Below are positions 5,365 to 61,710 of a stretch of DNA of 64,000 bases, piece by piece. Below the pieces are notes generated by a model. It saw only the letters and a program-made list of their open reading frames with translations, made no database searches and was not told the DNA's origin. Source of the stretch: Dechloromonas sp. ZY10 (GTDB taxonomy: Bacteria; Pseudomonadota; Gammaproteobacteria; Burkholderiales; Rhodocyclaceae); contig NZ_CP144212.1 of assembly GCF_041378895.1 (NCBI RefSeq), forward strand, positions 2,837,501 to 2,901,500, read 5' to 3'. The position numbers were made by a program, and so were the translations under genes. The number at the start of each line of letters is the position of its first letter. Positions within the stretch are counted from its first letter, which is position 1.

Positions 5365-7095
5365 ATGCGCACCTCGCAGTTTTTCTTTACCACCCTCAAG
5401 GAAGCCCCCGCCGACGCCGAAGTCATCAGCCAGAAAATGATGCTGCGCGCGGGTTACATCAAGCGTTCGGCAGCTGGCATCTATACCTGGATGCCACTGG
5501 GCCTGCGTGTGCTGCGCAAGGTTGAAAATATTGTTCGCGAAGAAATGAATGCCGCCGGTGCACTTGAATTGCTGATGCCGGCCGTGCAGCCTTTCGAGCT
5601 GTGGGAGGAATCCGGCCGCGGCCCGGCTTACGGCCCGGAACTGCTGCGCTTCAAGGATCGCCACCAGCGCGACTTCGTGATCGGCCCGACGCACGAGGAA
5701 GTGATCACCGACGTCGTCCGCCGCGACGTGAAAAGTTATCGCCAACTGCCGATTCACCTCTATCAGATTCAAACCAAGTTCCGCGACGAAATCCGCCCCC
5801 GTTTCGGCGTGATGCGCGGCCGCGAGTTCCTGATGAAGGACGGCTACTCCTTTCACACCTCCTTTGAGGACCTGGTGCGCGAGTACGGCAACATGTACGC
5901 CACCTACAGTCGTATTTTCACTCGTCTCGGCCTGAAGTTCCGCGCCGTCGCCGCCGACACCGGTTCGATTGGCGGCGATGGCTCGCACGAATTCCACGTC
6001 CTCGCCGACTCGGGTGAGGACGATATCGCCTTCTGCCCCGACTCCGACTACGCTGCCAACGTGGAACTGGCCGAGGCTGTCGCACCGGGTACGCCACGCG
6101 CGGCCGCCGGCAAGACCATGGACAAGGTCGCCACCCCGGGCAAGGCTGCCTGCGCGGATGTCGCCGCATTTCTCACGGTCGACCTGCAAAATATCGTTAA
6201 ATCAATTGCGGTGGTCAGCGAACAGGAAGACGGCGGTAAGAAATTCGCACTACTGCTGTTGCGTGGCGATCATGAACTGAACGAAATCAAGGCCGGCAAG
6301 ATTGCCGCACTCGGCGCCTTCCGCTTTGCCTCCGACAGCGAGATTCAGGAATATCTTGGCTGCATCCCCGGATTTATCGGTCCGGTCGGCGTCGACCGTG
6401 AACAGGTTGCCGTATTCGCTGACCGCAGCGTGGCCGCGATGAGCGACTTCATCTGCGGCGCCAACGAAGCCGGCTTCCACCTGACCGGCGTGAATTTTGG
6501 CCGCGACCTGCCCGAAGCCGAAGTGTTTGACCTTCGCAATGTTGTCGCCGGCGATCCTTCGCCGGACGGCAAGGGCAAGCTGGAAATCTGCCGCGGCATC
6601 GAAGTCGGCCATATTTTCCAGTTGCGCACCAAATACGCCAAGGCCCTCAACTGCGCCTTCCTCGACGAGAACGGCAAGAGCCAGATCATGGAGATGGGCT
6701 GCTACGGCATCGGTGTCTCGCGCATCGTCGGCGCCGCCATCGAACAGGGCAACGACGAGCGCGGCATTATCCTGCCTGCCTCGATCGCGCCATTCGCGGT
6801 CAGCATCGTGCCGATGGGTTATTTCAAGAGCGACGCCGTCAAGGCAGCGGCCGATCAGCTCTACGCCGACCTGAAACAGGCCGGGATCGACGTGGTGCTC
6901 GACGACCGCAACGAGCGCCCCGGCGTGATGTTTGCCGACATGGAACTGATCGGCATCCCGCATCGGGTGGTGATCGGCGAGCGCGGTCTCAAGGAAGGCC
7001 AGCTCGAATACAAGGGCCGCAGCGATGCTGAAGCCACCATGGTCGCGCAAGGCGAAATCCTCGCCTTCCTGCAAGGGAAACTGTGCGCCGCCTGA
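5365..7095 (+). CDS. proS: Prolyl-tRNA synthetase
   Basis: This 576-residue class II synthetase is of the bacterial (ProRS type 1) form. Class II motif 2 is in [23 protein letters not shown] near residue 140. The inserted editing domain lies at about 225-395, and the anticodon-binding domain covers the last 110 residues ([22 protein letters not shown]). It charges tRNA-Pro in the cytoplasm. The 3' end overlaps the GTG start of the lytic transglycosylase by 13 bases. Confidence 0.98.
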
Positions 7096-7694
7096 TCGCC
7101 GCGCTGCTCTACCTCTGCGCCACGGCCGCGCTGGCCGGGGCGCAGAAATACGAACCGCTGTCGGCCAGCGTTCAGGCCGCATTGCACAAGGCCGTGTCCG
7201 ACAGCCGCCCGGCGGTCAGTTCATTCAGGACACCACTGGAAGCCACGGATTGGCTGTCCACGATGTCGCCCCGACTGGAAAAGCGGATTCCCGACCGCGC
7301 CTACCGGATCGACCTGCTGCGCAGCGTACACTACGAGGCCACCCGCGCCGGACTCGACCCACAACTGGTTCTCGGGCTGATCCAGGTCGAATCCGGCTTT
7401 CGGAAATACGCGGTGTCTTCTGCCGGCGCCCGCGGCTACATGCAAGTCATGCCGTTCTGGCTCAAGCTACTGGGGCGACCAGAAGACTCCCTGTTCGACC
7501 TGCGCACCAACCTGCGCTACGGCTGCACCATCCTGCGCCACTATCTGGATATTGAAAAAGGTGACCTCTACCGCGCCCTGGGGCGTTACAACGGCAGCCT
7601 CGGCAAACCGGAATACCCGAATCTGGTTCGCGCTGCCTGGCAAAGCCACTGGGACTACCGGCAGCCGCTGCGACTAGCAGGACAAAACCGCTAA
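7083..7694 (+). CDS. Lytic transglycosylase, SLT domain
   Basis: This 203-residue exported protein has a signal peptide ending near AALAGA and an SLT lysozyme-like domain at about 90-190. The catalytic glutamate is in [22 protein letters not shown], and the domain continues with GYMQVMPFW and a typical [14 protein letters not shown] segment. Such enzymes cleave peptidoglycan to anhydro-muropeptides. The start is GTG at 7083, inside the proS 3' end (13-base overlap), which suggests translational coupling. A terminator follows. Confidence 0.88.
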
Positions 7695-7728
7695 CTCGAA
7701 TAACTCGCAACCGTCATGTAGCGACAAT

Positions 7729-7761
7729 AAAAAAGGCCAGCGCAAAGCGCAGGCCTTTTTT
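7729..7761. terminator. Bidirectional terminator between slt and ffh
   Basis: AAAAAAGGCC (7729-7738) pairs with GGCCTTTTTT (7752-7761), with an inner GCGC/GCGC extension. It lies between two convergent genes and has U-tracts for both strands. Confidence 0.85.
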
Positions 7762-7774
7762 GCATCAATCCGGC

Positions 7775-7799
7775 GTTGACCGTGAAAACCACGGTCAAC
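7775..7799. repeat. Inward-facing GTTGACCGTG hairpin
   Basis: GTTGACCGTG (7775-7784) and its exact complement (7790-7799) are separated by AAAAC. The arms are one-base variants of the iterated half-site GTCGACCGTG found across the window. It lies between the terminator and the 3' end of ffh, and lacks a T-tract, so it is not an obvious terminator. Confidence 0.7.
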
Positions 7800-7817
7800 T
7801 CAGCGCAAGCCGAAAAA

Positions 7818-9173: not shown

Positions 9174-9202
9174 GTGACTTGGGCTTCTAGTAGAATTTGC
9201 GA

Positions 9203-11398: not shown

Positions 11399-13117
11399 AT
11401 GGCAGCCACCCCACCCCATTCCACACTGAGCGGCCTGGCCCGCGCCCTTGTTCAGGCCGGCCAACTGACCGAAGCCGAAGCCGAGCAATTACTGCAGCAA
11501 GCCAGTGCCAACAAGCAAACCCTGGCCGAGCAATTTCTCGGCTCGCACAGTTTGCCGGCTGCCGACTTGGCCCGCTTCATCGCCGAAACATTTGGCTTTC
11601 CGCTACTCGACCTGGATGCGTTCGACGAGTCGCTGATTCCGATTGACGCGATTGATCGCAAACTGATTGCCAGTCACCGGGTGATTCCGCTCAACAAGCG
11701 GGGGAACCGGCTGGCGGTGGCCATGTCGGACCCGACCAATCTGAGAGCATTGGACGAAATCCGCTTTCAGACCGGACTGGCCGTAGACCCGGTGGTAGTC
11801 GAAGCCAACAAATTGGCGCCACTGGTAGGCAAACACGCCGAAGCGCCTCAGGATGCACTCAAGACACTAGCCAACGACGACCTCAACCTGGACCTGCTCG
11901 ATGGCGCCATCGAAAACGAACCACAGGAAGATACCAGCAACCAGGATGTCGATGACGCACCGATTGTTCGCTTCATCCAGAAAATCCTGCTCGATGCGAT
12001 TGAGGACGGCGCCTCGGATATCCATTTCGAGCCCTACGAAAAGTACTACCGCATCCGTTTCCGGGTAGACGGCATCTTGCGCGAAGTGGCAAGCCCCCCA
12101 TTGGCGATCAAGGAAAAGCTGGCCTCCCGGATCAAGGTCATCTCGCGCCTCAACATTGCTGAAAAGCGGGTTCCGCAGGATGGCCGGATGCGCCTCGTAC
12201 TCTCGAAAAACCGTGCCATCGATTTCCGGGTCAGCACCCTGCCCACGCTGCAAGGCGAAAAGATAGTCCTGCGGATTCTCGATCCCAGCTCAGCCACTCT
12301 CGGCATCGAAGCCCTGGGTTACGAACCGGAGCAAAAAGCGGCCTTGCTTGACGCGGTCAACCGCCCCTACGGCATGGTTTTGGTCACCGGACCGACCGGT
12401 TCGGGCAAAACGGTATCGCTGTACACCTGCCTCAACCTGCTGAACAAAGTTGGAGTCAATATCTCCACTGCCGAAGATCCGGCGGAAATCAACTTACCGG
12501 GAATCAATCAGGTCAACGTCGACGACAAGGCCGGGCTCACCTTTTCCTCGGCGCTGAAGGCATTCCTCCGCCAGGATCCGGACATCATCATGGTCGGCGA
12601 AATCCGCGATCTGGAAACGGCGGAAATCGCGATCAAGGCCGCGCAGACCGGACACCTGGTACTCTCGACGCTGCACACCAACGATGCGCCGCAGACACTG
12701 ACCCGGCTGATGAACATGGGCATCCCGACCTTCAACATCGCCTCCAGCATCCTGCTGATCACCGCCCAGCGCCTGGCGCGGCGTCTGTGTCACTGCAAAC
12801 AACCGATGGAAGTGCCGGAGCAGAGTCTGCTCGACGCCGGCTTCCGGCCGGAGGAATTGGACGATTCCTGGACCCTGTACGGACCTGGCGGCTGCGAGCG
12901 TTGCAAAGGCACCGGCTACAAGGGACGGGTTGGGATCTATCAAGTCATGCCAATCAGCGAGGACATGCAACGCCTGATCATGAGCGGTGCCACCGCCATC
13001 GATCTGGCCAATCAGGCCAAGCAGGAAGGCGTCAAGGACTTGCGCGAATCAGGCTTGCTCAAAGTCAAGCAGGGAGTCACTTCGCTCGACGAAGTGCTGA
13101 GTACGACCAACGCCTAA
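11399..13117 (+). CDS. pilB: Type IV pilus assembly ATPase PilB
   Basis: This 572-residue hexameric ATPase powers pilus extension. The N-terminal GSPII_E domain covers about 1-150. The Walker A motif GPTGSGKTVSLY is near residue 330, followed by the aspartate-box and Walker B region (QDPDIIMVGEIRDLETAEIA). Four cysteines of the zinc-binding element are in CHCKQ and CERCKGTGYKGR near residues 463-505. It heads the pilB-pilC-pilD operon. I saw no pilin gene beside it. Confidence 0.97.
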   Translation: MAATPPHSTLSGLARALVQAGQLTEAEAEQLLQQASANKQTLAEQFLGSHSLPAADLARFIAETFGFPLLDLDAFDESLIPIDAIDRKLIASHRVIPLNKRGNRLAVAMSDPTNLRALDEIRFQTGLAVDPVVVEANKLAPLVGKHAEAPQDALKTLANDDLNLDLLDGAIENEPQEDTSNQDVDDAPIVRFIQKILLDAIEDGASDIHFEPYEKYYRIRFRVDGILREVASPPLAIKEKLASRIKVISRLNIAEKRVPQDGRMRLVLSKNRAIDFRVSTLPTLQGEKIVLRILDPSSATLGIEALGYEPEQKAALLDAVNRPYGMVLVTGPTGSGKTVSLYTCLNLLNKVGVNISTAEDPAEINLPGINQVNVDDKAGLTFSSALKAFLRQDPDIIMVGEIRDLETAEIAIKAAQTGHLVLSTLHTNDAPQTLTRLMNMGIPTFNIASSILLITAQRLARRLCHCKQPMEVPEQSLLDAGFRPEELDDSWTLYGPGGCERCKGTGYKGRVGIYQVMPISEDMQRLIMSGATAIDLANQAKQEGVKDLRESGLLKVKQGVTSLDEVLSTTNA

Positions 13118-13132
13118 ACAGGAAGGCCGAGC

Positions 13133-14362
13133 ATGGCGACCACAGCCAAACCCAAAGTGCCCACAGTCAAGGAAAGCATTTTCCAATGGGAAGGTAAAAG
13201 CCGCGACGGCAAGTCGGTGCGAGGCGAGATGCGTGCCGCCAGCGAATCCGTAGTTCAGGCCACCCTGCGTCGCCAGGGCATCAGCAAAACCACCGTCAAA
13301 AAACTGAAATTCAAGTCGGGCGGCAAAATCAGTGACAAGGACATCACCCTGTTCACCCGGCAACTGGCGACCATGATGAAGGCCGGCGTCCCCTTGCTGC
13401 AATCCTTCGACATCGTCGGCCGTGGCCACGCCAATCCCGCCGTCGGCAAACTGCTGCTCGACATCAAGGCCGACGTCGAGACCGGCAGTTCGCTGTCGCA
13501 GGCTTTTCGCAAATACCCGCTGTATTTCGACAATTTGTTCTGCAACCTGATCGCTGCCGGCGAAGCAGCGGGGATTCTCGACAGCCTGCTCGACCGCCTG
13601 GCAACCTACAAGGAAAAAATGCAGGCAATCAAAGGCAAAATCAAGTCGGCACTGTTTTATCCGATCGCTGTTATCGCTGTCGCCATCATCATTACAGCGG
13701 TCATCATGATCTTCGTCATCCCCGCCTTCAAAGATGTCTTCAAAAGTTTCGGCGCCGACCTGCCAACTCCAACCCTGATCGTGATTGCGATGTCGGATTT
13801 CTTCGTCGAGTGGTGGTGGCTGATATTCGGCTGCATGGGGGGGGCCATCTACAGCTTTTTCGAGACCTGGAAACGCTCGGAAAAAATGCAGATGGTCATG
13901 GACCGCCTGTTCCTGCGTCTACCAATCTTCGGCGAGGTGATCCGCAAATCGGTGATTGCCCGCTGGACGCGCACTTTGGCCACGATGTTCGCTGCCGGCG
14001 TACCGCTGGTCGAAGCACTGGACTCGGTAGGCGGAGCCTCCGGCAATTATGTTTACAAGATCGCCACCCGCGAGATTCAGGCCGAGGTCTCGACCGGCAC
14101 CAACCTGACCCAGGCCATGCAGAACGTCAACCTCTTCCCCAACATGGTCACCCAGATGGTAGCGATTGGCGAAGAATCAGGTGCTCTCGACTCGATGCTC
14201 TCGAAAGTCGCCGATTTTTTCGAGGCCGAAGTCGATGATGCGGTTGAGGCGCTTTCAAGCTTGATGGAACCGATGATCATGGTAATACTCGGCACCCTGA
14301 TCGGCGGCATGGTAGTCGCCATGTATCTGCCAATTTTCAAGATGGGGAGCGTCGTCGGATGA
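13133..14362 (+). CDS. pilC: Type IV pilus inner-membrane platform protein PilC
   Basis: This 409-residue protein contains two T2SSF repeats (about 75-198 and 280-400), with the signatures LFTRQLATMMKAGVPLLQSF and RTLATMFAAGVPLVEALDSVGGASGN. Transmembrane segments are at about 175-195, 220-240 and 380-400. It is the platform on which PilB acts. It starts 15 bases after pilB, and its stop overlaps the pilD start by four bases. Confidence 0.97.
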   Translation: MATTAKPKVPTVKESIFQWEGKSRDGKSVRGEMRAASESVVQATLRRQGISKTTVKKLKFKSGGKISDKDITLFTRQLATMMKAGVPLLQSFDIVGRGHANPAVGKLLLDIKADVETGSSLSQAFRKYPLYFDNLFCNLIAAGEAAGILDSLLDRLATYKEKMQAIKGKIKSALFYPIAVIAVAIIITAVIMIFVIPAFKDVFKSFGADLPTPTLIVIAMSDFFVEWWWLIFGCMGGAIYSFFETWKRSEKMQMVMDRLFLRLPIFGEVIRKSVIARWTRTLATMFAAGVPLVEALDSVGGASGNYVYKIATREIQAEVSTGTNLTQAMQNVNLFPNMVTQMVAIGEESGALDSMLSKVADFFEAEVDDAVEALSSLMEPMIMVILGTLIGGMVVAMYLPIFKMGSVVG

Positions 14363-15219
14363 TGATGCCGGAAACCTTGGGTGGCCTGGCGGCCGCCGCC
14401 GGACTGCTAGGCTTGTGCGTCGGCAGCTTTCTGAATGTAGTGGTCCACCGCCTGCCAAAAATGATGGAGCAGGAATGGCGCGAACAATGCGCGGAGCTTT
14501 GCGGTGAAAATTGCAAAAACCCGCAGTCGACCGTGGAAAAGCTGTCGCTGGCCCGCCCCCGCTCCCGCTGCCCGGCGTGTGGACACGTCATTCGTGCATA
14601 CGAAAACATTCCGCTGCTCAGCTACCTGCTGCTGCGTGGCCGCTGCTCGGCTTGCCATCAGTCGATTTCGCTTCGCTACCCGCTGGTCGAACTGCTTACC
14701 GCCGCACTCTCGGCAGGAGCTGCCTGGCACTTTGGCCCCAGTTGGCAAACCGTCGGCGCCCTCGCCTTGCTCTGGGCCCTGGTTGCGCTGACGATGATTG
14801 ACCTCGATACGCAGCTGCTGCCAGACAGCATCACCCTGCCTTTGCTCTGGCTCGGCCTGCTGATCAATCTGCATGGGCATTTCGTTTCTCTCGAAGCCGC
14901 CGTCATCGGCGCAGTTGCTGGCTACCTGGCGCTCTGGAGCGTATTCTGGCTATTCAAGCTGGCGACCGGCAAGGAGGGCATGGGCTATGGCGATTTCAAG
15001 CTGCTGGCGGCGCTTGGCGCCTGGCTCGGCTGGAGCATGTTGCCGACCATCGTCCTGCTCTCTTCGCTGGTCGGCGCCTGCGTCGGGATCGGGCTGATCG
15101 TCTTCGCCCGCCACGGACGCAATGTCCCGATTCCCTTCGGCCCTTACCTCGCAGCCGCAGGTGTTATCGCGCTCTTCTGGGGCGAAAAGATCAACCGGAC
15201 CTATCTTGGCCTGCTCTGA
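14359..15219 (+). CDS. pilD: Prepilin peptidase / N-methyltransferase PilD
   Basis: This 286-residue integral-membrane aspartyl protease cleaves and N-methylates prepilins. The N-terminal cytoplasmic loop has two CxxC pairs (CPACGH and CSACHQ, residues ~73-101). The catalytic aspartates are in MIDLDTQLLPD near residue 147 and in GYGDFKLLAALGAWLG near residue 209. Its start overlaps pilC by four bases. In many relatives coaE follows; here an FmdB-type gene does. Confidence 0.97.
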   Translation: MMMPETLGGLAAAAGLLGLCVGSFLNVVVHRLPKMMEQEWREQCAELCGENCKNPQSTVEKLSLARPRSRCPACGHVIRAYENIPLLSYLLLRGRCSACHQSISLRYPLVELLTAALSAGAAWHFGPSWQTVGALALLWALVALTMIDLDTQLLPDSITLPLLWLGLLINLHGHFVSLEAAVIGAVAGYLALWSVFWLFKLATGKEGMGYGDFKLLAALGAWLGWSMLPTIVLLSSLVGACVGIGLIVFARHGRNVPIPFGPYLAAAGVIALFWGEKINRTYLGLL

Positions 15220-18020: not shown

Positions 18021-18449
18021 ATGACTCATGCCGTACTCCGTCTGCTCCTGACTTTCTGGCTGGCGCTGGCGGCATGCTGCTTGCCGGGCACCGTGGGTGC
18101 CCGCGACCAGGCTCAGGGCAACACTTACACGGTCGACAGCGAAAAAGGCAAAAATTCGCCTTTTTCCGGGTCGACCGTGGCACTCGCCGAACTACCGCGC
18201 GAAGCCCGCGAGACCTATGCGCTGATCCTGCGCGGCGGCCCCTTCCCTTATGACCGCGACGGGATCGAGTTCCGCAACTTTGAAAAGCGCCTGCCCAAGG
18301 CCGCGCGCGGCTTCTACCGTGAATATACGGTCAAGACGCCGGGCGAACGCAGCCGTGGCGCCCGCCGCATCGTCAGCGGCGGCGAGCCGCCGAGCGTGTT
18401 TTACTACACCGACGATCACTACAACAGCTTCCGCCGGATTCACGACTGA
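18021..18449 (+). CDS. Secreted barnase-like guanyl-specific ribonuclease
   Basis: This 142-residue protein has a signal peptide (hydrophobic to about residue 26), then a microbial N1/T1 RNase domain. Catalytic-type residues appear in GIEFRNFEKRLP (the general-base Glu region), YREYTVKTPG, RGARRIVSG (Arg) and FYYTDDHYNSFRRI (the His of barnase-family enzymes). Such enzymes cut single-stranded RNA after G. A barstar-like gene follows 23 bases later, the expected inhibitor. Bases 18128-18179 (between signal peptide and domain) contain a hairpin bearing two copies of the window's iterated GTCGACCGTG repeat. Family recognition is firm; substrate and target cell are inference. Confidence 0.88.
   Translation: MTHAVLRLLLTFWLALAACCLPGTVGARDQAQGNTYTVDSEKGKNSPFSGSTVALAELPREARETYALILRGGPFPYDRDGIEFRNFEKRLPKAARGFYREYTVKTPGERSRGARRIVSGGEPPSVFYYTDDHYNSFRRIHD
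18128..18179. repeat. Iterated-repeat hairpin inside the RNase gene
   Basis: CACGGTCGAC (18128-18137) and GTCGACCGTG (18170-18179) flank an inner inverted pair GAAAAAGGC/GCCTTTTTC with an 8-base loop. The stretch encodes residues about 37-53, between signal peptide and catalytic domain. Confidence 0.65.
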
Positions 18450-19425: not shown

Positions 19426-19854
19426 ATGGCTAATCTGATGCGTCACGACGCCCATCTCGATTCGCTCGACGACCTGTTTCGCGGCTTTTTTGTCCGCCCG
19501 GTCGAATTCAACCAACACCCGGCAACACCTCCGGCGATCACTCTCGACGTCCGCGAACAAGCCGATGCTTATCTGGTTCACGCCGAACTACCCGGCGCCC
19601 GCAAGGAAAACATTCACGTCACGGTCGACGGCGCACTGGTTTCAATCAGCGCCGAGGTCCGGCAGGAGCGCGAAAGCAAGGAAGGCGAGCGGGTTCTGCG
19701 CAGTGAACGCTACTTCGGCAAAGTATCCCGCTCCTTCCAGCTGGCCCAGGAAATCGACGATAGCCAAGCCAGCGCCCGCTTCACCGACGGCGTGCTCGAA
19801 CTGACCTTGCCAAAGCGCAGCGCCAGCCCGCAACGCCGGCTCTCGATCGAGTAA
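19426..19854 (+). CDS. Small heat-shock protein, Hsp20/alpha-crystallin family
   Basis: This 142-residue ATP-independent holdase has an alpha-crystallin domain at about 40-130. The domain includes ELPGARKENIHVTVDGALVSISAE and the A-x-x-x-x-G-V-L motif (ARFTDGVLELTLPK), with a short C-terminal extension. It keeps unfolding proteins soluble in the cytoplasm. AAGGAGG lies ten bases before the ATG. The sigma32-type promoter upstream indicates heat induction, and a strong terminator follows. Confidence 0.95.
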   Translation: MANLMRHDAHLDSLDDLFRGFFVRPVEFNQHPATPPAITLDVREQADAYLVHAELPGARKENIHVTVDGALVSISAEVRQERESKEGERVLRSERYFGKVSRSFQLAQEIDDSQASARFTDGVLELTLPKRSASPQRRLSIE

Positions 19855-20879: not shown

Positions 20880-21521
20880 ATGTCACCGCCCCCCACCTGG
20901 CTCTTCGACCTCGACAACACCCTGCACAATGCCTCGGCACGGATTTTTCCGCACATCAACCGGGCCATGCGCGAGTACATCGAACGCCATCTCGGCCTCG
21001 ACCGATACGCTGCCGACCGCCTGCGCGCCGACTACTGGCGGCGCTACGGCGCGACCCTGCTTGGACTGGTCCGCCATCACGCGACCGACCCGCAGCATTT
21101 TCTCGACGAAACCCATCGTTTCCCCGACCTGGAACGGATGATCGTCTTCGAGAAGCCCTTGCTGCACGCGCTGAAGCGCCTGCCCGGGCGCAAGATCCTG
21201 TTCACCAACGGCCCCGCCGCTTACGCCAACGCGGTTCTGGCGCTGACCGGACTGCAGCGCCATTTCGATAGCGTTTATAGCGTCGAGCGCCTGCGCTTTC
21301 AGCCCAAACCGAGCCGTGCCGCCTTCGACATCGTTCTCCGCAACGAGCGACTGACGCCTCACCGCTGCATCCTGGTTGAGGACAGCCTGGAAAATCTGGT
21401 TACTGCCAAGAAACTGGGAATGCGAACGGTCTGGATCAATACCGGAATGCGCCAGTCGCCGTTTGTCGACCTCAAGCTGCGTTCGGTCCGCGAATTACCC
21501 CACCGCTACGGTCGACTATAA
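20880..21521 (+). CDS. Pyrimidine 5'-nucleotidase-like HAD hydrolase
   Basis: This 213-residue HAD phosphatase has the nucleophile motif FDLDNTLHNA at residues 9-18, motif II in KILFTNGPAAYANAVL, the lysine in FQPKPSRAAFDIVL and motif III in ILVEDSLENLVTAKKLGM. It resembles the Sdt1-like pyrimidine 5'-nucleotidase subfamily found next to argB and slmA in betaproteobacteria. Substrate preference is inference. Its 3' end contains TATAAT, which may serve as the -10 of slmA. Confidence 0.85.
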   Translation: MSPPPTWLFDLDNTLHNASARIFPHINRAMREYIERHLGLDRYAADRLRADYWRRYGATLLGLVRHHATDPQHFLDETHRFPDLERMIVFEKPLLHALKRLPGRKILFTNGPAAYANAVLALTGLQRHFDSVYSVERLRFQPKPSRAAFDIVLRNERLTPHRCILVEDSLENLVTAKKLGMRTVWINTGMRQSPFVDLKLRSVRELPHRYGRL

Positions 21522-22177: not shown

Positions 22178-22274
22178 CGGCGTGCCTGCGACTAACCCGC
22201 TTGGTGGCAAGCTTGCCTGCCCGTCATTGCCAACTTTGAGAAAGAACGGGGGCGCCGCAGCGCCCCGGAAATAC

Positions 22275-23491
<1,217 letters not shown>

Positions 23492-28126: not shown

Positions 28127-28157
28127 CGGGTTGACCGTGAAACCCACGGTCAACCCG
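28127..28157. repeat. Inward-facing GTTGACCGTG hairpin between msrQ and bioC
   Basis: A 13-bp stem CGGGTTGACCGTG (28127-28139) pairs with its complement (28145-28157) around AAACC. It is a second copy of the 7775-7799 architecture and also sits between convergent genes. Confidence 0.7.
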
Positions 28158-39028: not shown

Positions 39029-39048
39029 TTTCACGGTCGACCGTGAAA
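39029..39048. repeat. Full palindrome TTTCACGGTCGACCGTGAAA
   Basis: A perfect 20-bp palindrome of the iterated repeat lies in the 251-base gap between convergent moeB and ribD. The flanks (GGAAAATCGAC on the left, TTCCGAAAAACC on the right) extend the inverted similarity. The remaining gap (39049-39241) shows no gene I can support. Confidence 0.8.
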
Positions 39049-42164: not shown

Positions 42165-42830
42165 TCACGAAGGAAGTTCATCCAGCGCACCCGGTTCAAG
42201 ATGCCCGGTTTCACCCCAGGATTCGATCGCCCATTTTTGCCCGTTTTCGCTGTTGACCGTGGAAATCCAGTTCAAACCGGCATTGGGAATCAGGAAGTCG
42301 CGCGGCCGCTCAAGCGGAGTTGCCCGGACAAAGCGATTGACAATGTCCAGCACCCCGCCATGTACCACGATGGCAACCGCCGCTCCGGCATGCGCAGCGG
42401 CGATTGCGCGGAGCTTTCCGGTAACCCGCGCATGCATCGTTTTCAGGCTTTCGCCATTTTCGAAGGCATAATCCGCATTGCGCCCCTCGAACGCGGCGTA
42501 GCCCTCAGGGTAGCGGGCCGCCGCCTCGGCGTAGGTCAGCCCCTGGAAAATGCCATAACAGCGTTCGCGGAGTTCCGGATGGCGGCTGACCTCCAGCCCC
42601 AGTTCGGCGCCAATCGCCTCGGCGGTAGTCGCGGCCCGCTTGAGATCGCTGCTGTAGAGGGCGACAATGCCGGCCCCGCGCAACCAGCGTCCGGCGGCTT
42701 GCGCCTGACCCAGGCCGGTGGCGTTGAGTCCGATATCGATCTGCCCCTGAATTCGCCGCTCGGCATTCCATTCGGTTTCGCCGTGACGAATCAGGCACAG
42801 ACGGGTGATTTGACTAGGGATTTCCTGCAT
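42165..42830 (-). CDS. Histidine phosphatase family protein
   Basis: This 221-residue phosphoglycerate-mutase-like phosphatase has the catalytic RHG motif in LCLIRHGETEWNAE near residue 12, a second histidine in VVHGGVLDI, and the arginine in YSSDLKRAATTAEAI. Substrate is undetermined; GpmB- or CobC-type members are possible. I chose the ATG at 42830 (MQEIPSQITRL). Confidence 0.9.
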   Translation of the reverse strand: MQEIPSQITRLCLIRHGETEWNAERRIQGQIDIGLNATGLGQAQAAGRWLRGAGIVALYSSDLKRAATTAEAIGAELGLEVSRHPELRERCYGIFQGLTYAEAAARYPEGYAAFEGRNADYAFENGESLKTMHARVTGKLRAIAAAHAGAAVAIVVHGGVLDIVNRFVRATPLERPRDFLIPNAGLNWISTVNSENGQKWAIESWGETGHLEPGALDELPS

Positions 42831-45667: not shown

Positions 45668-45677
45668 GTTGTCGACC

Positions 45678-45818
45678 GTGAAAATCGCCGCCCCCGCCAT
45701 GACTGAGTCCGCCCCGCATCACCACTGGACCCAATCCAGCGCCTACGGCTTGATCATCTCGCCGCACATCGGCGAAGCCGGCGATTACGTGCTTGAACGC
45801 GCTTTCGTCGAGCAGTAA
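45678..45818 (+). CDS. Possible 39-46-residue small ORF
   Basis: From ATG at 45699 the frame reads MTESAPHHHWTQSSAYGLII and on to a TAA at 45816; a GTG at 45678 lies in frame and inside an iterated-repeat copy. It is not a recognised family and has no clear ribosome-binding site. It may be a real small protein, a gene remnant or chance. It lies between two terminators. Confidence 0.25.
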   Translation: MKIAAPAMTESAPHHHWTQSSAYGLIISPHIGEAGDYVLERAFVEQ

Positions 45819-45867: not shown

Positions 45868-45896
45868 ACTGCAAACGGTCAGTCGACCGTGGCGGA

Positions 45897-47116: not shown

Positions 47117-48469
47117 TCAGGCCCCGGCGACGGTCATCCGGTCGATCAGGATGGACCCCGCCTGCTTCGAACCGCGAATCAGCACATCGTTCCCGACCGC
47201 AGCGATACCGGCAAACATCTGCCGCAGATTGCCGGCAATCGTGATCTCCTCGACCGGGTGCACGATCTCGCCGTTCTCCACCCAGAAACCGGCGGCGCCG
47301 CGCGAATAATCGCCGGTTACATAATTGATCCCATGCCCCAGCAGTTCGGTCACCACCAGGCCACGCCCCATCTGCTTGAGCAGGCCGGAAAAATCGAGTT
47401 CGCCGGGTTGCAGCAGCAGGTTGTAGGCACCGCCGGCATTGCCGGTCGTCTGCATGCCCAGCTTGCGCGCCGAATAGGCCGACAGGAAATAGCCTTGCAG
47501 CACCCCGCCCTCGACCACTGCCCGCTCGCGGGTTGCGACGCCATCGCTGTCGAACGCCGCCGAACCGAGCGCCCCCCGCAGATGCGGCCGTTCGTCGATG
47601 CGCACGAAATCCGGCAGGATTTTCTGCCCCAGCTGGCCGACCAGAAACGACGCCTTGCGGTACAGCGCGCCGCCGCTGGCGGCATGAACCAGGCTGCCGA
47701 GCAAGCCGCCGGCCAGCGTGGCATCGAACAACACCGGATATTCGCCGGTCTTGATCCTTTGCGCGCCGAGCCGCCCGGTAGCCCGTTCCGCCGCTCGCCG
47801 CCCGACCGCTTCGGCAGCATCAAGCAAGGCCGGATTGCGATTGGTGGTATACCAGTCGTCACGCTGCATGCCTTCGCCGTCTTCCTCGCCGGCGATCACC
47901 GAGCATGAGACATAGTGACGCGAGGTTGGATAACCGCCCATGAAGCCGTGGCTGTTGGCCGAAACGAAATGTGCCTGCTGGGTCGACACCGACGCGCCTT
48001 CCGAATTTTCGATCAAGGGGCTGGTCGCAAACGCCGCTTGTTCGCAGCGCTTGGCAATCTCTATCGCCGCTTCCACGGTCAACGCCCAGGGATGGTGCAA
48101 ATCGAGTTCCGGGCAATCGCGCGCCATCAGCGCTGCCTCGGCCAGGCCGGCGCAATCGTCCTCGGCAGTGAAGCGAGCGATCTTGAGCGCAGCCTCGACC
48201 GTGTCGCGCAGTGCCTGCGGCGAGAAATCGGACGTACTGGCGTAGCCCTTGCGCTGCCCGGCATAGACGGTAACGCCAATACCCTTGTCGCGATTGAACT
48301 CGATGGTTTCGACCTCGTCGCAGCGCACCGTGACCGATTGCCCGAAGCCCTCAGAGACGTCCACCTCGCAGGCGCTGGCGCCCTGTTTTTTGGCATGCGT
48401 GAGCACATCTTCGGCCAACTGCTGCAGGGTGGCATGGGCGTAGGAAAAAGCGGAGGAATCGTTGGGCAT
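47117..48469 (-). CDS. pmbA: Metalloprotease PmbA (TldE)
   Basis: This 450-residue protein is the TldE/PmbA partner of the TldD-TldE protease, which matures peptides such as microcin and degrades CcdA. Motifs include CEVDVSEGFGQSV, EFNRDKGIGVTVYAG, the [23 protein letters not shown] region and GHGINYVTGDYSRGAAGFWVENGE. It is divergent from darP. Confidence 0.96.
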   Translation of the reverse strand: MPNDSSAFSYAHATLQQLAEDVLTHAKKQGASACEVDVSEGFGQSVTVRCDEVETIEFNRDKGIGVTVYAGQRKGYASTSDFSPQALRDTVEAALKIARFTAEDDCAGLAEAALMARDCPELDLHHPWALTVEAAIEIAKRCEQAAFATSPLIENSEGASVSTQQAHFVSANSHGFMGGYPTSRHYVSCSVIAGEEDGEGMQRDDWYTTNRNPALLDAAEAVGRRAAERATGRLGAQRIKTGEYPVLFDATLAGGLLGSLVHAASGGALYRKASFLVGQLGQKILPDFVRIDERPHLRGALGSAAFDSDGVATRERAVVEGGVLQGYFLSAYSARKLGMQTTGNAGGAYNLLLQPGELDFSGLLKQMGRGLVVTELLGHGINYVTGDYSRGAAGFWVENGEIVHPVEEITIAGNLRQMFAGIAAVGNDVLIRGSKQAGSILIDRMTVAGA

Positions 48470-49136: not shown

Positions 49137-49722
49137 GACGCTGAAAATCGGCCTGGTCTCGATCAGCGACCGCGCCTCGACCGGCGTTTATGAAGACAAG
49201 GGTATTCCGGCGCTGCAGGACTGGCTCGGCCGCGCACTGGCCTCGCCCTGGGAATGCGTGCCCCGGCTGATCGCCGACGAACAGGCAGAGATTGAAAATA
49301 CCCTGATCGAACTGGTCGACCGTGAACAATGCCATCTGGTGCTGACCACCGGCGGCACCGGTCCGGCGCCGCGCGACGTGACGCCGGAAGCAACGCTGGC
49401 GGTGGCCGACAAGGAAATGCCCGGCTTCGGCGAGGAAATGCGGCGGATCAGCCTCAACTTCGTGCCGACCGCAATCCTCTCGCGCCAGGTTGCGGTGATC
49501 CGCAAGCAGGCGCTGATCATCAACCTGCCCGGCCAGCCGAAGGCGATCCAGGAAACCCTGGAGGGCGTCCGCCACCCCGACGGCAGCGTGCGCCATGTCG
49601 GCATCTTTGCCGCCGTGCCCTACTGTATTGACCTAATCGGCGGCCCCTACTGCGAAACCAATGCTGCGGTGATCCAGGCCTTCCGCCCCAAAAGCGCGCA
49701 GCGCCCCGCCCGCCCGAACTAA
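49129..49722 (+). CDS. mog: Molybdopterin adenylyltransferase
   Basis: This 197-residue enzyme adenylates molybdopterin before metal insertion. It has the signature LTTGGTGPAPRDVTPEATLAVADKEMPGFGEEMR and LINLPGQPKAI. It overlaps darP by eight bases. A molybdoenzyme client, msrP, is in the same window. One iterated-repeat copy (49315-49324) lies in the gene. Confidence 0.95.
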   Translation: MSETLKIGLVSISDRASTGVYEDKGIPALQDWLGRALASPWECVPRLIADEQAEIENTLIELVDREQCHLVLTTGGTGPAPRDVTPEATLAVADKEMPGFGEEMRRISLNFVPTAILSRQVAVIRKQALIINLPGQPKAIQETLEGVRHPDGSVRHVGIFAAVPYCIDLIGGPYCETNAAVIQAFRPKSAQRPARPN

Positions 49723-52158: not shown

Positions 52159-52667
52159 AACCGGAAATCGTCATCATCGCCGCCGTGGCGCAAAACCGCG
52201 TCATCGGCAAGGACAACCAGCTGCTCTGGCATCTCCCTGAAGACATGGCGCATTTCAAGGCGATGACCAGCGGCCGCCCGGTGATCATGGGGCGCAAGAC
52301 CTGGGAGTCGCTGCCGCCGCGCTTTCGCCCGCTGCCCGGCCGACGCAATATCGTGATCAGCCGCCAACCGGACTACGCTGCCCCCGGCGCCGAACTCGCC
52401 GACTCGCTGGAAAATGCGCTATTCCTGCTGTCGACCGTGGACGCCGCGGACCTTAGCCCGGCCTTCGTCATTGGCGGCGAACAGATCTACCGCCAGGCCA
52501 TGACGCTCGCCGACCGCCTCGAAATCACCGAAGTCGAACTGCAACCCGAAGGCGATGCCTGGTTTCCCGAGATTTCCACGGTCGACTGGGAAATGGTGCA
52601 AAAACGCACCGCCGACCGCAGCGATGTGCCGGCTTGCCACTTTGTCACCTATCGTCGCCGGCGCTGA
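52155..52667 (+). CDS. folA: Dihydrofolate reductase
   Basis: This 170-residue enzyme regenerates tetrahydrofolate after thymidylate synthesis. Motifs are IIAAVAQNRVIGKDNQLLWHLPEDMAHFKAMTSGRPVIMGRKTWESLP and FVIGGEQIYRQAM. The start overlaps the pgi stop (ATGA). Two iterated-repeat copies (52430-52439 and 52577-52586) lie in the gene. Confidence 0.97.
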   Translation: MKPEIVIIAAVAQNRVIGKDNQLLWHLPEDMAHFKAMTSGRPVIMGRKTWESLPPRFRPLPGRRNIVISRQPDYAAPGAELADSLENALFLLSTVDAADLSPAFVIGGEQIYRQAMTLADRLEITEVELQPEGDAWFPEISTVDWEMVQKRTADRSDVPACHFVTYRRRR

Positions 52668-53244: not shown

Positions 53245-53249
53245 AGCAA

Positions 53250-56561: not shown

Positions 56562-56605
56562 AAAAAGCCCGCTATCCACGGTCGACCGTGGATAGCGGGC
56601 TTTTT
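56562..56605. terminator. 44-bp perfect palindrome containing the iterated repeat
   Basis: Two 22-base arms with no loop are centred on GGTCGACC, with AAAAAGCCCGCTATCCACGG on the left and the exact complement on the right. A5/T5 at the ends make it a terminator on both strands. It lies after apbC and includes the repeat core CACGGTCGACCGTG (56577-56590). Confidence 0.9.
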
Positions 56606-56642
56606 CATCTCAGCCGGCGGAGGAACGCCGGCGCGGAGGCAA

Positions 56643-57734
56643 TCAGGTGTTCTTGACCACGATATTGGGGAACTTCGAAGTCATGTCCTTGGCTTTGTCG
56701 GCGATCTTGACTGCGATGCGGCGGGCGATGGCGCGGTAGATTTCGGCCGGGCGCGAGTCGGGGGCGCCGACTACGGTCGGCTGGCCGCTGTCGGCGAGCT
56801 GGCGGATCGAGAGTTCGAGCGGCAGGCTGCCGAGCAGTTCGACCTTGTAGTCTTCGCCCATGCGCGCGCCGCCGCCTTCGCCGAAGATGTGCTCTTCGTG
56901 GCCGCAGTTGGAGCAGATGTGGATGCTCATGTTTTCGACGATGCCGAGGATGGGGATGTTGACCTTCTCGAACATCTTGAGGCCCTTGCGCGCGTCGATC
57001 AGCGCGATGTCCTGCGGCGTGGTGACGATCACCGCGCCGGTCACCGGCACTTTCTGCGCCATCGACAGCTGGATGTCGCCGGTGCCCGGCGGCATGTCGA
57101 CGATCAGGTAATCGACCTCGCCCCAGTTGGTCTGGCCGAGCAGCTGGTCGAGCGCCTGGGCGACCATCGGGCCGCGCCAGACCATCGGCGTTTCGACATC
57201 GACCATGAAGCCGATCGACATCGCCTTGACGCCGTGCGCTTCCAGCGGCTCCATGGATTCGCCATCCTTGGATTCCGGCTGCTGGCCGGCAAGGCCGAGC
57301 ATTTGCGGCTGCGAGGGGCCGTAAATATCGGCGTCGAGAATGCCGACCGAGGCGCCTTCCTGCGCCAGGGCCAGCGCCAGGTTGACGGCGGTGGTCGATT
57401 TGCCGACGCCGCCCTTGCCGGAGGCGACGGCGATGATGTTCTTGACGCCGGGCAGCAGCTTGACGCCAAGCTGCACCGAGTGGGCGACGATTTTGCTGAA
57501 GACGTTGGCCGAGACGTTGCCGACGCCGGCGACGCTGCGCACGGCGGCAATCACCTGCTTGCGGATGGCGTCGATCTGGGTCTTGGCCGGGTAGCCGAGT
57601 TCGATATCGAAAGAGACGTCGGCGCCGTCGATTTTCAGATTCTTGAGCGCCTTGCCGGCGACGAAATCCTTGCCGGTATTGGGGTCGACCGTGGCAGCCA
57701 GCGCCGCCTTGATCTGCTGTTCGGTAAAGCTCAT
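56643..57734 (-). CDS. apbC: Iron-sulfur cluster carrier ATPase ApbC/Mrp
   Basis: This 363-residue P-loop protein carries and transfers Fe-S clusters. It has an N-terminal DUF59/MIP18-type domain (1-90), the deviant Walker A in VASGKGGVGKSTTAVNLALALA near residue 106, MPPGTGDIQLSMAQ, and CSNCGHEEHIFGEGG near residue 285, where the CxxC binds the cluster. I place the start at MSFTEQQIKAALA (57734). One iterated-repeat copy (57684-57693) lies in the gene. Confidence 0.95.
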   Translation of the reverse strand: MSFTEQQIKAALAATVDPNTGKDFVAGKALKNLKIDGADVSFDIELGYPAKTQIDAIRKQVIAAVRSVAGVGNVSANVFSKIVAHSVQLGVKLLPGVKNIIAVASGKGGVGKSTTAVNLALALAQEGASVGILDADIYGPSQPQMLGLAGQQPESKDGESMEPLEAHGVKAMSIGFMVDVETPMVWRGPMVAQALDQLLGQTNWGEVDYLIVDMPPGTGDIQLSMAQKVPVTGAVIVTTPQDIALIDARKGLKMFEKVNIPILGIVENMSIHICSNCGHEEHIFGEGGGARMGEDYKVELLGSLPLELSIRQLADSGQPTVVGAPDSRPAEIYRAIARRIAVKIADKAKDMTSKFPNIVVKNT

Positions 57735-59255: not shown

Positions 59256-59342
59256 GCCCGCCGGGCGCGAACACCCCATGCGACTGCCGGACGCAAGGCC
59301 GGGCAGACTGCGGCCTTCGGCGGCGCCACTGAAAAAGCCGTA

Positions 59343-59365
59343 TTTTCATGGTCGACCGTAAAAAG
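59343..59365. repeat. Iterated-repeat palindrome between the cyclase and metG
   Basis: TTTTCATGGTCGACCGTAAAAA is an imperfect copy of the repeat. It lies in the otherwise gene-free 226-base gap (59256-59481). Confidence 0.7.
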
Positions 59366-59481
59366 CGGCCAAAACCGCCGCTACGCGACCCTGAAGCAAT
59401 GCGCGACAGTACGCAGCGCGCCGCACAGGCAGCCACTTTGCCTTTAAAATTCACCCTTTGCCGCAACGCACAAAGCCGATC

Positions 59482-61599
59482 ATGACCCGCAAGATTCTTG
59501 TCACTTCCGCCCTGCCCTACGCCAACGGCGCGATCCACCTCGGCCATCTGGTCGAGTACATCCAGACCGATATCTGGGTCCGCTTCCAGAAGATGTCCGG
59601 CAACGAATGCTGGTACGTCTGCGCCGACGACACCCACGGCACGCCGATCATGCTGCGCGCCGAGAAGGAAGGCATCACCCCGGAGCAGTTGATCGAGCGC
59701 GTGCATGGCGAGCATTTCCGCGACTTTTCCAGCTTCCACGTCGGTTTCGACAACTATTACAGCACCCACTCGCCGGAAACCCGCGAGTGCGCCAACGACA
59801 TCTACGGCAAGCTCAAGGCCGCCGGGCTGATCGAGGTGCGCACCATCGAGCAGTATTACGACCCGGTCAAGCAGATGTTCCTGCCCGACCGCTTCATCAA
59901 GGGCGAGTGCCCGAAGTGTCACGCCAAGGACCAGTACGGCGACAACTGCGAAGCCTGCGGCGCAGCCTACGCGCCGACCGACCTGATCGAGCCTTTCTCG
60001 GCCGTGTCCGGCGCCAAGCCGGAACTGCGCAATTCCGATCACTATTTCTTCAAGCTCTCCGACCCGCGCTGCGAAAGCTTCCTGCGCCAATACACCGCCA
60101 GCGGCGTGCTGCAGGCCGAAGCCGCCAACAAGATGCAGGAATGGCTGGGCGCGCCCGGCGACAACAAGCTCTCCGACTGGGACATTTCGCGCGATGCGCC
60201 CTATTTCGGTTTCGAGATTCCCGACGCGCCGGGCAAGTACTTCTACGTCTGGCTCGACGCACCGATCGGCTACATGGGCTCGTTCAAGAACCTGTGCGCC
60301 AAGAAGGGCCTCGATTTCGACGAGTTTTTCAGGAAGGATTCGAGCACCGAGCTCTACCACTTCATCGGCAAGGACATCCTCTACTTCCACGCGCTGTTCT
60401 GGCCGGCGGAACTGGAGCAGGCCGGTTTCCGTACCCCGAGCAAGATCTTCGCGCACGGCTTTCTCACGGTCGACGGCGCCAAAATGTCGAAATCGCGCGG
60501 CACCTTCATCACTGCGCAGAGCTTCATCGACAACGGCCTCAACCCGGAATGGCTGCGCTACTACTTTGCCGCCAAGCTGTCGGCGACGATGGAAGACATC
60601 GACCTCTCTTTCGACGACTTCACCGCCCGCGTCAATTCCGACCTGGTCGGCAAGTACGTAAACATCGCCAGCCGCTCGGCCGGCTTCATCGCCAAGCGCT
60701 TCAACGGCCAGCTGGCCCCGGCCGACGAGAGCCTGCCGGCCCTGCGCGCGATCCGCGAAGCCGCGCCGCGCATCGCCGAGCTGTACGAAGCCCGCGAATT
60801 CGGCAAGGCGATCCGCGAAATCATGGCCCTGACCGACGGCGCCAACCAGTACGTCGATAGCGTCAAGCCCTGGGAACTGGCCAAGCAGGAAGGCAAGGAG
60901 GCCGAACTGCACGCCGCCTGCTCCAACGCGCTCAACCTCTTCCGCCTGCTCACCGTGCTCTTGAAGCCGATCCTGCCGGCCGTCGCCGAAAAGATCGAAG
61001 CCTTCATGAACCTGGCGCCGCTGACCTGGGCCGACAGCCAGACCCTGCTCGCCGCCGGCCACGCGATCAACGCCTACAACCACCTGATGACCCGCGTCGA
61101 TCCCAAGCAGATCGAAAAACTGATCGAAGCCAACAAGCAGTCGCTGGCGCCGACCGCCGAGGTCGCCACGGTCGACAGCAAAAAAGCGGAAAAACCCGCC
61201 AAGGCTGAAAAGGCCGGCAAGGCCGTCGACCAGAAGGACGCCGCCCCGGCAACCGATGACGGCCTGTGCAGCATCGACGACTTCATGAAGATCGACCTGC
61301 GCATCGCGCTGATCGCCAACGCCGAACACGTCGAAGGCGCCGACAAGCTGGTGCGCCTGACCCTGGATATCGGCGAGGAAAAGACGCGCAACGTTTTCGC
61401 CGGGATCAAGGCCGCCTACGACCCGGCGCAACTGATCGGCCGCCTGACGGTGATGGTCGCCAACCTGGCGCCGCGCAAGATGAAGTTCGGGATGTCCGAA
61501 GGCATGGTCATGGCCGCCTCCGACCCGGACGGCAAAACCCCGGGCATCTACCTGCTCTCGCCCGACTCCGGCGCAACGCCGGGAATGCGCGTCAAATAA
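59482..61599 (+). CDS. metG: Methionyl-tRNA synthetase
   Basis: This 705-residue class I synthetase has the HIGH-like HLGHLVEY near residue 20, a zinc knuckle in [18 protein letters not shown] near 146-162, KMSKSRGT near 334, and a C-terminal tRNA-binding OB domain (about 600-705). A Lys/Ala linker at about 560-590 contains iterated-repeat sequence (61167-61200). I chose the ATG at 59482 ([16 protein letters not shown]). Confidence 0.98.
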
Positions 61600-61621
61600 G
61601 CGGCCAGCCGCTGCCAACTGT

Positions 61622-61648
61622 AAGGCCGGGGATTCCCGGCCTTTTTTA
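61622..61648 (+). terminator. Intrinsic terminator after metG
   Basis: AAGGCCGGG pairs with CCCGGCCTT around a 4-base loop, followed by T. Confidence 0.85.
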
Positions 61649-61659
61649 CCTCTGGGCGA

Positions 61660-61710
61660 CGGGAAAATCGCTGCTTTTCACGGTCGACCGTAAAAAACGC
61701 GCTTTTTCCT
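61660..61710. repeat. Near full-length copy of the iterated palindromic element
   Basis: GGGAAAATCGCTG, CTTTTCACGGTCGACCGT and the right arm AAAAAACGCGCTTTTTCC form an imperfect inverted repeat of about 50 bases. It gives the best view of the full element. The gap to 61845 holds two DnaA-box-like words (TTATCCCCA at 61710, TGTGGACAA at 61736) and no gene. Confidence 0.7.

What the first reader, a model, noticed from the sequence alone, without database searches (positions are those of the whole stretch)
6174..61696. Window-wide iterated palindromic repeat with half-site GTCGACCGTG
Exact GTCGACCGTG (either strand) occurs at 19 loci that I could locate: 6174, 6391, 14526, 18128, 18170, 19620, 30701, 39032, 39879, 45671, 45882, 49315, 52430, 52577, 56577, 57684, 60465, 61167 and 61679. 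Near variants lie at 7775, 28130, 32714, 42252, 48076 and 59348. From base composition I would expect well under one copy in 64 kb. The half-site is often followed by GAAAA. Intergenic copies tend to be full palindromes (TTTCACGGTCGACCGTGAAA at 39029), while genic copies are mostly half-sites. This resembles neisserial uptake sequences, which also form gene-end inverted repeats; the window holds pilB/C/D and comF. Alternatives are a nucleoid-organising protein site or a palindromic mobile element. Function is inference.
Basis: partly seen in the sequence, partly recalled or inferred. Interest (0 to 1): 0.75.

Follow-up and report, generated by a model that had tools for sequence, protein, structure and literature searches.

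The report
Candidate DNA-uptake sequence in Dechloromonas/Azonexus bacteria
A short DNA 'password' repeated well over a thousand times in this bacterium looks like the label some bacteria use to recognise and take up DNA of their own kind, a system so far reported only from two other bacterial families.

Summary
GTCGACCGTG occurs 21 times in the window (expected 0.14) and 886 times in the 3.57-Mb genome (442 + 444; reversed control 20). It is the core of an oriented unit: an A/T triplet 16-18 bp upstream (298 of 329 cores; chance 6%) and a weaker tract nearer by. Palindromes are two overlapping units. Strict units extrapolate to about 1,430 per genome.

Units lie equally on both strands, in genes and, as inverted pairs, between convergent genes; they are rare in low-GC DNA. 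Of the genomes searched only this genus has them: 40 of 76 species strongly, 36 weakly or not; none of 285 other family genomes. Endings differ between species (CGTG, CGCA, CGCG, CGTC, CGCT) over a shared GTYGACCG. The genus includes D. agitata, without the motif.

Best reading (0.8): a third, apparently independent uptake-sequence system, laid out like the Pasteurellaceae USS but different in sequence. No uptake assay exists, the receptor is not identified, and ComEC, ComEA and a ComP_DUS-domain pilin occur in nearly all genus genomes, so they do not explain the losses.

The parts
6174..6183 (-). exact core, inside the gene 5365-7095 (class II aminoacyl-tRNA synthetase with editing domain)
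6391..6400 (+). exact core, same gene
7775..7799 (.). inverted pair of GTTGACCGTG variants (7775 +, 7790 -), outside predicted genes
14526..14535 (+). exact core inside pilD (prepilin peptidase domain, 14359-15219)
18128..18137 (-). exact core
18170..18179 (+). exact core
19620..19629 (-). exact core; A/T tract shifted by one base
21507..21516 (-). variant core GTCGACCGTA with A/T tract
26724..26733 (-). variant core GTCGACCGTA with A/T tract
28130..28154 (.). inverted pair of GTTGACCGTG variants (28130 +, 28145 -), outside predicted genes
30701..30710 (+). exact core
32722..32731 (+). variant core GTCGACCGTA with A/T tract
39032..39045 (.). full palindrome = two overlapping exact units, outside predicted genes
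39879..39888 (-). exact core inside the RibD-like gene; the aligned place in eight compared loci has no core
42252..42261 (+). variant GTTGACCGTG with A/T tract
45671..45680 (+). exact core, outside predicted genes
45882..45891 (+). exact core, outside predicted genes
48074..48083 (-). variant GTTGACCGTG inside pmbA; GTTGACCGTG/C at the same place in four motif-bearing relatives, not in D. agitata
49315..49324 (+). exact core inside a molybdopterin-binding-domain gene; same place in four motif-bearing relatives with GTYGACCGC endings
52430..52439 (+). exact core
52577..52586 (-). exact core
56577..56590 (.). full palindrome = two overlapping exact units, centre of a long perfect inverted repeat with A/T-rich ends (terminator-like)
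57684..57693 (+). exact core; A/T tract shifted
59351..59360 (+). variant GTCGACCGTA, outside predicted genes
60465..60474 (-). exact core inside the methionyl-tRNA synthetase gene
61167..61176 (-). exact core inside the methionyl-tRNA synthetase gene
61679..61692 (.). overlapping inverted pair (61679 - exact, 61683 + GTCGACCGTA), outside predicted genes
11399..15219 (+). pilB-pilC-pilD: type IV pilus assembly ATPase, platform protein and prepilin peptidase, the kind of machinery an uptake sequence needs
   Evidence: domains T2SSE+MshEN, T2SSF, A24_N_bact+Peptidase_A24; gene names by domain and order

Best explanation
The repeat is a DNA-uptake (self-recognition) sequence for natural transformation. 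SHOWN by sequence: a genus-restricted, oriented motif (A/T tract - 15 bp - GTYGACCG + two dialect bases; read the other way, NN-CGGTCRAC followed by two A/T tracts about 10 bp apart), extrapolating to over a thousand copies per genome, in near-equal numbers on both strands, in genes and in terminator-like pairs, scarce in low-GC DNA, with species-specific endings and a patchy, tree-clustered presence within the genus. INFERRED: a sequence-specific receptor on the type IV pilus, probably a minor pilin, binds the core while the A/T tracts one and two helical turns away set a bend. Retraction then brings DNA carrying the motif through the secretin to ComEA and ComEC, and recombination puts it into the chromosome. 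Because DNA with the motif is taken up more often, chance matches spread and persist by this drive. When specificity or competence is lost the sites decay, and when receptor preference shifts they change together, giving dialects. Overlapping inverted units between genes are secondarily used as terminators.
For: 886 exact cores vs 20 for the reversed control, 442/444 by strand. A/T triplet at -18..-16 in 298/329 cores, in 104/117 GTTGACCGTG and 79/83 GTCGACCGTA, but in few copies of most other one-base variants; no signal beyond about 25 bp. Strict units 257/247 by strand, Fano factor 1.17 per stretch, 121 with vs 124 against the gene. Density 0.40 per 10 kb below 56% GC vs 4.9 above 63%, Spearman 0.56 over 124 blocks; a stretch with a Druantia type II-like system has 0. 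25 of 99 inverted pairs lie between convergent genes, 1.1% of sampled positions. Two classes in the genus: 40 of 76 species at 6.6-43x control, 36 at 0.5-3.7x, plus-strand counts; outside it at most 94 hits in 285 family genomes and at most 132 in 394 order genomes, against over 1,100 in ten of twelve genus genomes. Dialects over a core whose only well-supported one-base variant in five species groups is GTTGACCG. Sites 48074 and 49315 kept at the same place in four motif-bearing relatives, absent in D. agitata. ComEC 71/76, ComEA 75/76, ComP_DUS-domain pilin 70/76 genomes.
Against: No uptake or transformation data for the genus turned up in the searched library. The receptor is not found: in the loci compared, prepilins and minor-pilin operon types (sorted by eye from a motif scan of 20 loci) do not track motif status (the list was capped), and G302 and G303 share a dialect although their whole minor-pilin operon differs, which weakens (but, if the swap is recent, does not exclude) that operon as the specificity determinant. 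ComEC integrity does not track motif status (6 of 25 low vs 4-5 of 35 high interrupted or shortened, Fisher p 0.29-0.50). Many motif-less species keep ComEC, ComEA and a ComP_DUS pilin. Density (about 400 strict units per Mb) is below the 2,206 units of H. influenzae (PMC7811141, passages) in a genome half the size. Of the four poorest 20-kb stretches only two were examined for gene content; one (flagellar genes) need not be foreign. Some sites are not shared with relatives (39879), and several dialects rest on 4-14 units.
Confidence: 0.8

Rival explanations
1. Binding site of a nucleoid-organising or chromosome-maintenance protein: a dimer that recognises GTCGAC-centred pseudo-palindromes and bends DNA through phased A/T tracts.
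For: Pseudo-dyad symmetry of the combined site with A/T tracts about 9.5 and 19.5 bp either side of the centre; even spread over the chromosome.
Against: 198 of 328 cores are not palindromic, and in these the far-left A/T triplet is present in 0.89 and the far-right in 0.25; no strand or sector bias, unlike KOPS, Chi, parS or matS (recalled); endings change in concert between species and many species lack the sites, costly if over a thousand sites served chromosome structure (inference); scarce in low-GC DNA.
Confidence: 0.1
2. A HIP1-like iterated palindrome kept up by a methyltransferase, repair or mutation bias centred on GTCGAC.
For: GTCGAC is a palindrome and the sample holds 65 full CACGGTCGACCGTG palindromes (130 strand-counts).
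Against: A methylation or mutation bias does not explain the A/T triplet 16-18 bp away on one side in 298 of 329 cores and in two variant cores, nor endings that differ between species outside GTCGAC.
Confidence: 0.04
3. A miniature mobile or REP/BIME-like repeat that spread by copying.
For: Hairpin-forming intergenic copies.
Against: No sequence shared beyond about 25 bp from the core; 245 of 504 strict units lie inside predicted genes in either orientation; sites in genes align to homologous positions in relatives without gaps at 48074.
Confidence: 0.02
4. A relic: the motif was an uptake sequence in the ancestor but is no longer used, also in the motif-rich species.
For: 36 of 76 species have it weakly or not at all; comEC is interrupted in some motif-rich species too (G308, G332).
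Against: Core and tract are sharp in this genome, with two strongly favoured variants rather than a cloud of decayed ones; comEC is open here (869 codons stop to stop).
Confidence: 0.04

Closest known systems
Pasteurellaceae uptake signal sequence (USS; Hin type AAGTGCGGT, Apl type ACAAGCGGT)
   Same: Very many copies; oriented core followed on one side by two A/T segments roughly one turn apart; dialects; inverted pairs in terminators. Dialects with C at core position 8 read NGCGGTCRAC on the other strand and so share GCGGT, on the same side of the A/T tracts, with the USS core.
   Different: The shared part here is CGGTCRAC, which matches the USS only in CGGT; this genome's own dialect reads ACGGTCGAC and lacks GCGG; the farther A/T tract is the stricter one; overlapping inverted units give a pseudo-palindrome of about 45 bp; Betaproteobacteria instead of Gammaproteobacteria. 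The shared 4-5 letters may well be chance (my rough estimate, no call: about 1 in 10).
Neisseriaceae DNA uptake sequence (DUS, read by ComP)
   Same: Same class of bacteria; very many copies; dialects over a constant core; terminator pairs; overlapping dyad pairs were described in Simonsiella muelleri (PMC3630211, passages). Genus genomes carry a pilin with the ComP_DUS domain.
   Different: DUS is a continuous motif with CTG core and no A/T segments (PMC12616744); GTYGACCG has no CTG. The ComP_DUS pilin here sits in a minor-pilin operon, and the profile of 19 such pilins matches a solved PilE (4noa, E 6.5e-15) far better than ComP (5hz7, E 9.5e-4).
HIP1 of cyanobacteria (recalled, no call)
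   Same: Highly iterated short palindrome of undemonstrated role.
   Different: No one-sided A/T tracts or species endings of this sort that I recall; here the palindrome is a by-product of overlapping units.

Membership tests
Uptake-sequence systems in general (DUS/USS kind) | Hundreds to thousands of copies of a 9-12 nt motif, far above expectation | tested here: met
   886 vs 20 control; 504 strict units in 1.26 Mb, extrapolating to about 1,430
Uptake-sequence systems in general (DUS/USS kind) | Both strands equally, genes and intergenic, no replichore polarity | tested here: met
   442/444; 257/247 and near-equal in eight sectors
Uptake-sequence systems in general (DUS/USS kind) | Inverted pairs in terminator positions | tested here: met
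   25 of 99 pairs convergent vs 1.1% background; several long perfect hairpins with A/T ends; gene calls approximate, termination itself not tested
Uptake-sequence systems in general (DUS/USS kind) | Dialects over a conserved inner core | tested here: met
   Five ending types; core GTYGACCG checked in five species groups without fixing it: only GTTGACCG, and weakly GTCGACCA in one group, pass as anchored variants
Uptake-sequence systems in general (DUS/USS kind) | Dialects follow phylogeny | tested here: inconclusive
   Sister pairs G000/G352 and G302/G303 share endings; G305/G339 show the same three endings in different proportions; too few units elsewhere
Uptake-sequence systems in general (DUS/USS kind) | Type IV pilus and ComEA/ComEC machinery present | tested here: met
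   pilBCD domains, ComEC 71/76, ComEA 75/76 of which 67 over cut-off; pilQ and dprA not searched
Uptake-sequence systems in general (DUS/USS kind) | Preferential uptake of DNA carrying the motif | not testable with these tools
   needs an uptake assay
Uptake-sequence systems in general (DUS/USS kind) | Sequence-specific receptor | tested here: inconclusive
   No prepilin or operon type compared tracks the motif or its dialect
Neisseriaceae DUS | CTG-core continuous 10-12-mer | tested here: not met
   core GTYGACCG, discontinuous; DUS definition from PMC12616744 introduction
Pasteurellaceae USS | ANNNGCGGT core with two 3' A/T segments | tested here: not met
   Segment layout similar, GCGGT only in some dialects, CRAC extension
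Mobile repeat (REP/MITE) | Copied unit with homologous flanks | tested here: not met
   flank information near zero beyond about 25 bp

The most novel reading that the evidence does not exclude
The Dechloromonas/Azonexus genus evolved, independently of Neisseriaceae and Pasteurellaceae, a third DNA-uptake-sequence system: a discontinuous element read by a pilus-tip receptor on DNA bent by helically phased A/T tracts, able to overlap with itself as a palindrome of about 45 bp. It has diversified into several dialects (five ending types seen) and been lost repeatedly within one genus, giving a natural series from full use through decay to absence.
Probability: 0.72. Interest if true: 0.9.

Novelty: new variant of a known kind. 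Interest (0 to 1): 0.85.

Why it matters
[quoted passage not shown] A third case in environmental bacteria would show that uptake sequences arise repeatedly, give an independent test of why they exist (drive versus selection for recombination), and offer a genus with several dialects and many losses in which the receptor could be found by co-variation. It might also help the genetics of this genus (perchlorate and nitrate reducers, polyphosphate accumulators; physiology recalled), since adding the motif to DNA might make these strains transformable.

Tried and rejected
Nucleoid site, HIP1-like palindrome, mobile repeat and relic were considered (see rivals). Base composition was rejected: the reversed-pattern control and the order-3 Markov expectation are each over 40-fold lower. 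In the order-wide scan some unrelated genomes have up to 139 exact 10-mers (G056; also G285 131, G219 117), but with the A/T anchor G056 and G285 fall to control level or less than twice it (89 vs 91 and 81 vs 47), so I take them as composition.

Receptor hunt: minor-pilin operon type (20 loci), ComP_DUS pilin (76 genomes), N-methyl prepilins of 14 genomes (capped list, sequences compared only for a part), and ComEC integrity (60 of 76 genomes) were compared with motif status; none explains it. A k-mer search for a replacement motif in the motif-less G300 (120 kb) and G307 (80 kb) showed none of comparable strength. The plus/minus difference in the gapped-pattern counts (e.g. 807 vs 1423) is at least partly a counting artefact: listings on the minus strand often give one site twice, once for each gap length. 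I therefore repeated the classification on plus-strand counts alone; the same 40 genomes are high. The first ComEC tree contained wrong reading frames for several genomes and was discarded, in which G307 was left out as too short. Gene calls come from a home-made codon-bias finder and are approximate. Structure prediction was not used.

Papers: PMC12616744 (abstract, outline and introduction); PMC3630211, PMC7811141, PMC13020248, PMC1852404 and PMC1626085 (found passages only). Others were seen only as listings. The statement that I found no report of such a motif in this genus rests in an open-licence library without preprints.


Full report
Observation. The pattern search confirms every listed locus: 21 exact GTCGACCGTG in the window against 0.14 expected. 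The window is 2837501-2901500 of a single 3,568,927-base contig, in which the 10-mer occurs 442 times forward and 444 reverse; the same letters read backwards occur 13 and 7 times. In a sample of 60 spaced stretches plus the window (1.26 Mb, 35% of the genome) it occurs 329 times against 7.7 from an order-3 Markov model.

Anatomy. Aligned on the core, 327 sites show A/T enrichment centred near -17, -7, +12 and +22 and almost nothing beyond about 25 bp. In non-palindromic cores (198) the far-left triplet is A/T in 89% and the far-right in 25%, so the unit has a direction; the 130 palindromic cores are 65 pairs of overlapping opposite units. Of one-base variants only GTTGACCGTG (119 seen, 3.1 expected) and GTCGACCGTA (83, 3.8) are strongly favoured, with minor ones such as GTGGACCGTG (19, 1.2); these carry the same tract (104 of 117, 79 of 83 and 15 of 19), whereas most other one-base variants seldom do. 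Read on the other strand the consensus is YACGGTCRAC, then an A-rich tract and an A/T tract about ten bases apart.

Distribution in the genome. 504 strict units: 257/247 by strand, near-even by strand in eight sectors, Fano 1.17 over the 60 stretches. Predicted genes hold 245 (2.4 per 10 kb) and the rest 259 (10.5 per 10 kb); in genes 121 point with and 124 against the gene, with one reading frame nearly avoided on the same strand (2 of 121) (approximate gene calls). Of 99 inverted pairs, 25 are between convergent genes (1.1% of sampled positions) and several form 21-24-bp perfect arms with A/T-rich ends, the look of two-way terminators. Density falls from 4.9 per 10 kb in blocks above 63% GC to 0.4 below 56% (124 blocks, Spearman 0.56). 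Of the four poorest stretches (L044, L046, L048, L057) I examined two: the emptiest (0 in 20 kb) holds a Druantia type II-like defence system and another is a low-GC flagellar cluster.

Distribution among genomes. The A/T-anchored pattern was counted in 297 family genomes: ten of twelve genus members have over 1,100 hits, two have 241 and 93, and the 285 genomes of 67 other genera have at most 94. In 399 order genomes (159 genera) nothing outside the genus exceeds 132. In all 76 genus genomes held the plus-strand ratio to control falls in two classes: 40 at 6.6-43 and 36 at 0.5-3.7, several of the latter at 2-4 as if decaying. A ComEC tree of 59 of them needs at least ten changes between the classes (seven forced by well supported branches; shuffled mean 18.8, 0 of 500 as low), and motif-rich species occur on both sides of the midpoint root. 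Old presence with repeated loss is the simplest reading; gains by transfer are not excluded, and one gene is not a species tree.

Names. A named-genome scan with the window's PmbA gave Dechloromonas agitata is5 with a contig of exactly G300's length (no motif) and, at 77-79% identity, D. hortensis MA-1, an Azonexus MAG and two Dechloromonas MAGs with the motif; one of these MAG contigs has exactly the length of a G354 contig (133,201). The genus is therefore Dechloromonas/Azonexus; for D. hortensis and the Azonexus MAG membership of the same genus handle is inferred. In 72 further loci of that scan (1.30 Mb) the loose unit occurs 13 times, 0.10 per 10 kb, against 37 in the 64-kb window; L160, L187 and D. 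agitata had none and L159 two (locus number recounted).

Dialects. The bases after GTYGACC differ: CGTG here (424 of 621 loose units) and in G352 (30 of 43), CGCA in G349 (19 of 33), G361 (8 of 11), G310 (8 of 12) and G333 (8 of 12), CGCG or CGCA in G305 (22 of 33), CGTC in G306 (11 of 24), CGCT in G302 (23 of 93) and G303 (11 of 41), the four letters being core positions 6-9; nine further species sampled had 4-17 units each, some mixed. That count fixes the core; without fixing it, single-base variants in five species groups showed only GTTGACCG as clearly anchored, with a weak GTCGACCA in G302+G303. At window 48074 and 49315 four named motif-bearing relatives have the core at the aligned place, at 49315 with C instead of T at position 8, while D. 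agitata lacks it; 39879 is not shared and several intergenic sites had no alignable counterpart, so there is turnover too.

Machinery. Within the genus ComEC is found in 71 of 76 genomes, ComEA in 75 (67 over the cut-off) and a ComP_DUS-domain pilin in 70. In this genome that pilin heads an operon pilE-fimT-pilV-pilW-pilX-pilY1 (L114:4293-11103, minus strand; names beyond the two domain hits are by position, size and prepilin motif). None of these tracks the motif in the loci compared. G302 and G303 share a dialect but have unlike minor-pilin operons between flanks 93-95% identical (pilE 41% and fimT 34% identical). That is a cassette exchange between homologous flanks, as transformation could produce, and argues against this operon as the sole specificity determinant unless the exchange is recent. 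ComEC is interrupted or shortened in 6 of 25 motif-poor and 4-5 of 35 motif-rich loci, not a significant difference.

Reading. The distributional hallmarks given for DUS and USS in the passages read are met: enrichment, both strands, terminator pairs, dialects. The sequence is neither. The layout is closer to the USS: a core, then two A/T segments on the 3' side. Dialects with C at position 8 even share GCGGT with it, a lead that may be chance. A chromosome-structure role is less likely because over a thousand sites change their ending together between species, are missing in whole species and avoid low-GC DNA; under uptake drive each site is dispensable and such changes are expected (inference). 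What is missing is the experiment: no uptake assay, no receptor.

Noticed in passing
L120:9079-15482 versus L121:3900-10331 (genomes G302, G303): The whole minor-pilin operon of about 6.4 kb is replaced by an unlike version between flanks 93-95% identical: a pilin cassette exchange, possibly by transformation.
   Followed up: partly
L294-L295 (G353), L291 (G332), L283 (G308), L265 (G344), L285 (G371): comEC is interrupted or cut off at one of two places (reference residues about 323 and 335) in several species. In G353 the halves lie about 32.5 kb apart and the insert begins with a large serine recombinase, has 53% GC and no motif unit; in G332 a below-cut-off N-terminal piece lies about 33.7 kb away. 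comEC may be a recurrent integration site, turning transformation off.
   Followed up: partly
L057:42-14680 (own genome about 1560042-1574680): Druantia type II-like defence system (DruE2, DruF2, DruG2, DruK-like, cytosine methylase) in a motif-free stretch.
   Followed up: partly
window 22274-22329: Seven perfect tandem copies of the octamer CGGCTAAC at the 3' end of hemB (ALAD domain, minus strand), an array whose length could slip.
   Followed up: no
Dialects with C at core position 8 read NGCGGTCRAC with A/T tracts on the 3' side, sharing GCGGT and its orientation with the Pasteurellaceae USS; chance or a common kind of receptor.
   Followed up: partly
own-genome sample, strict units: Besides overlapping pairs (offset 4; 82 pairs), opposite units recur at offsets 33-34 (13 pairs) and 42-43 (4 pairs); the spacing is unexplained.
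   Followed up: no
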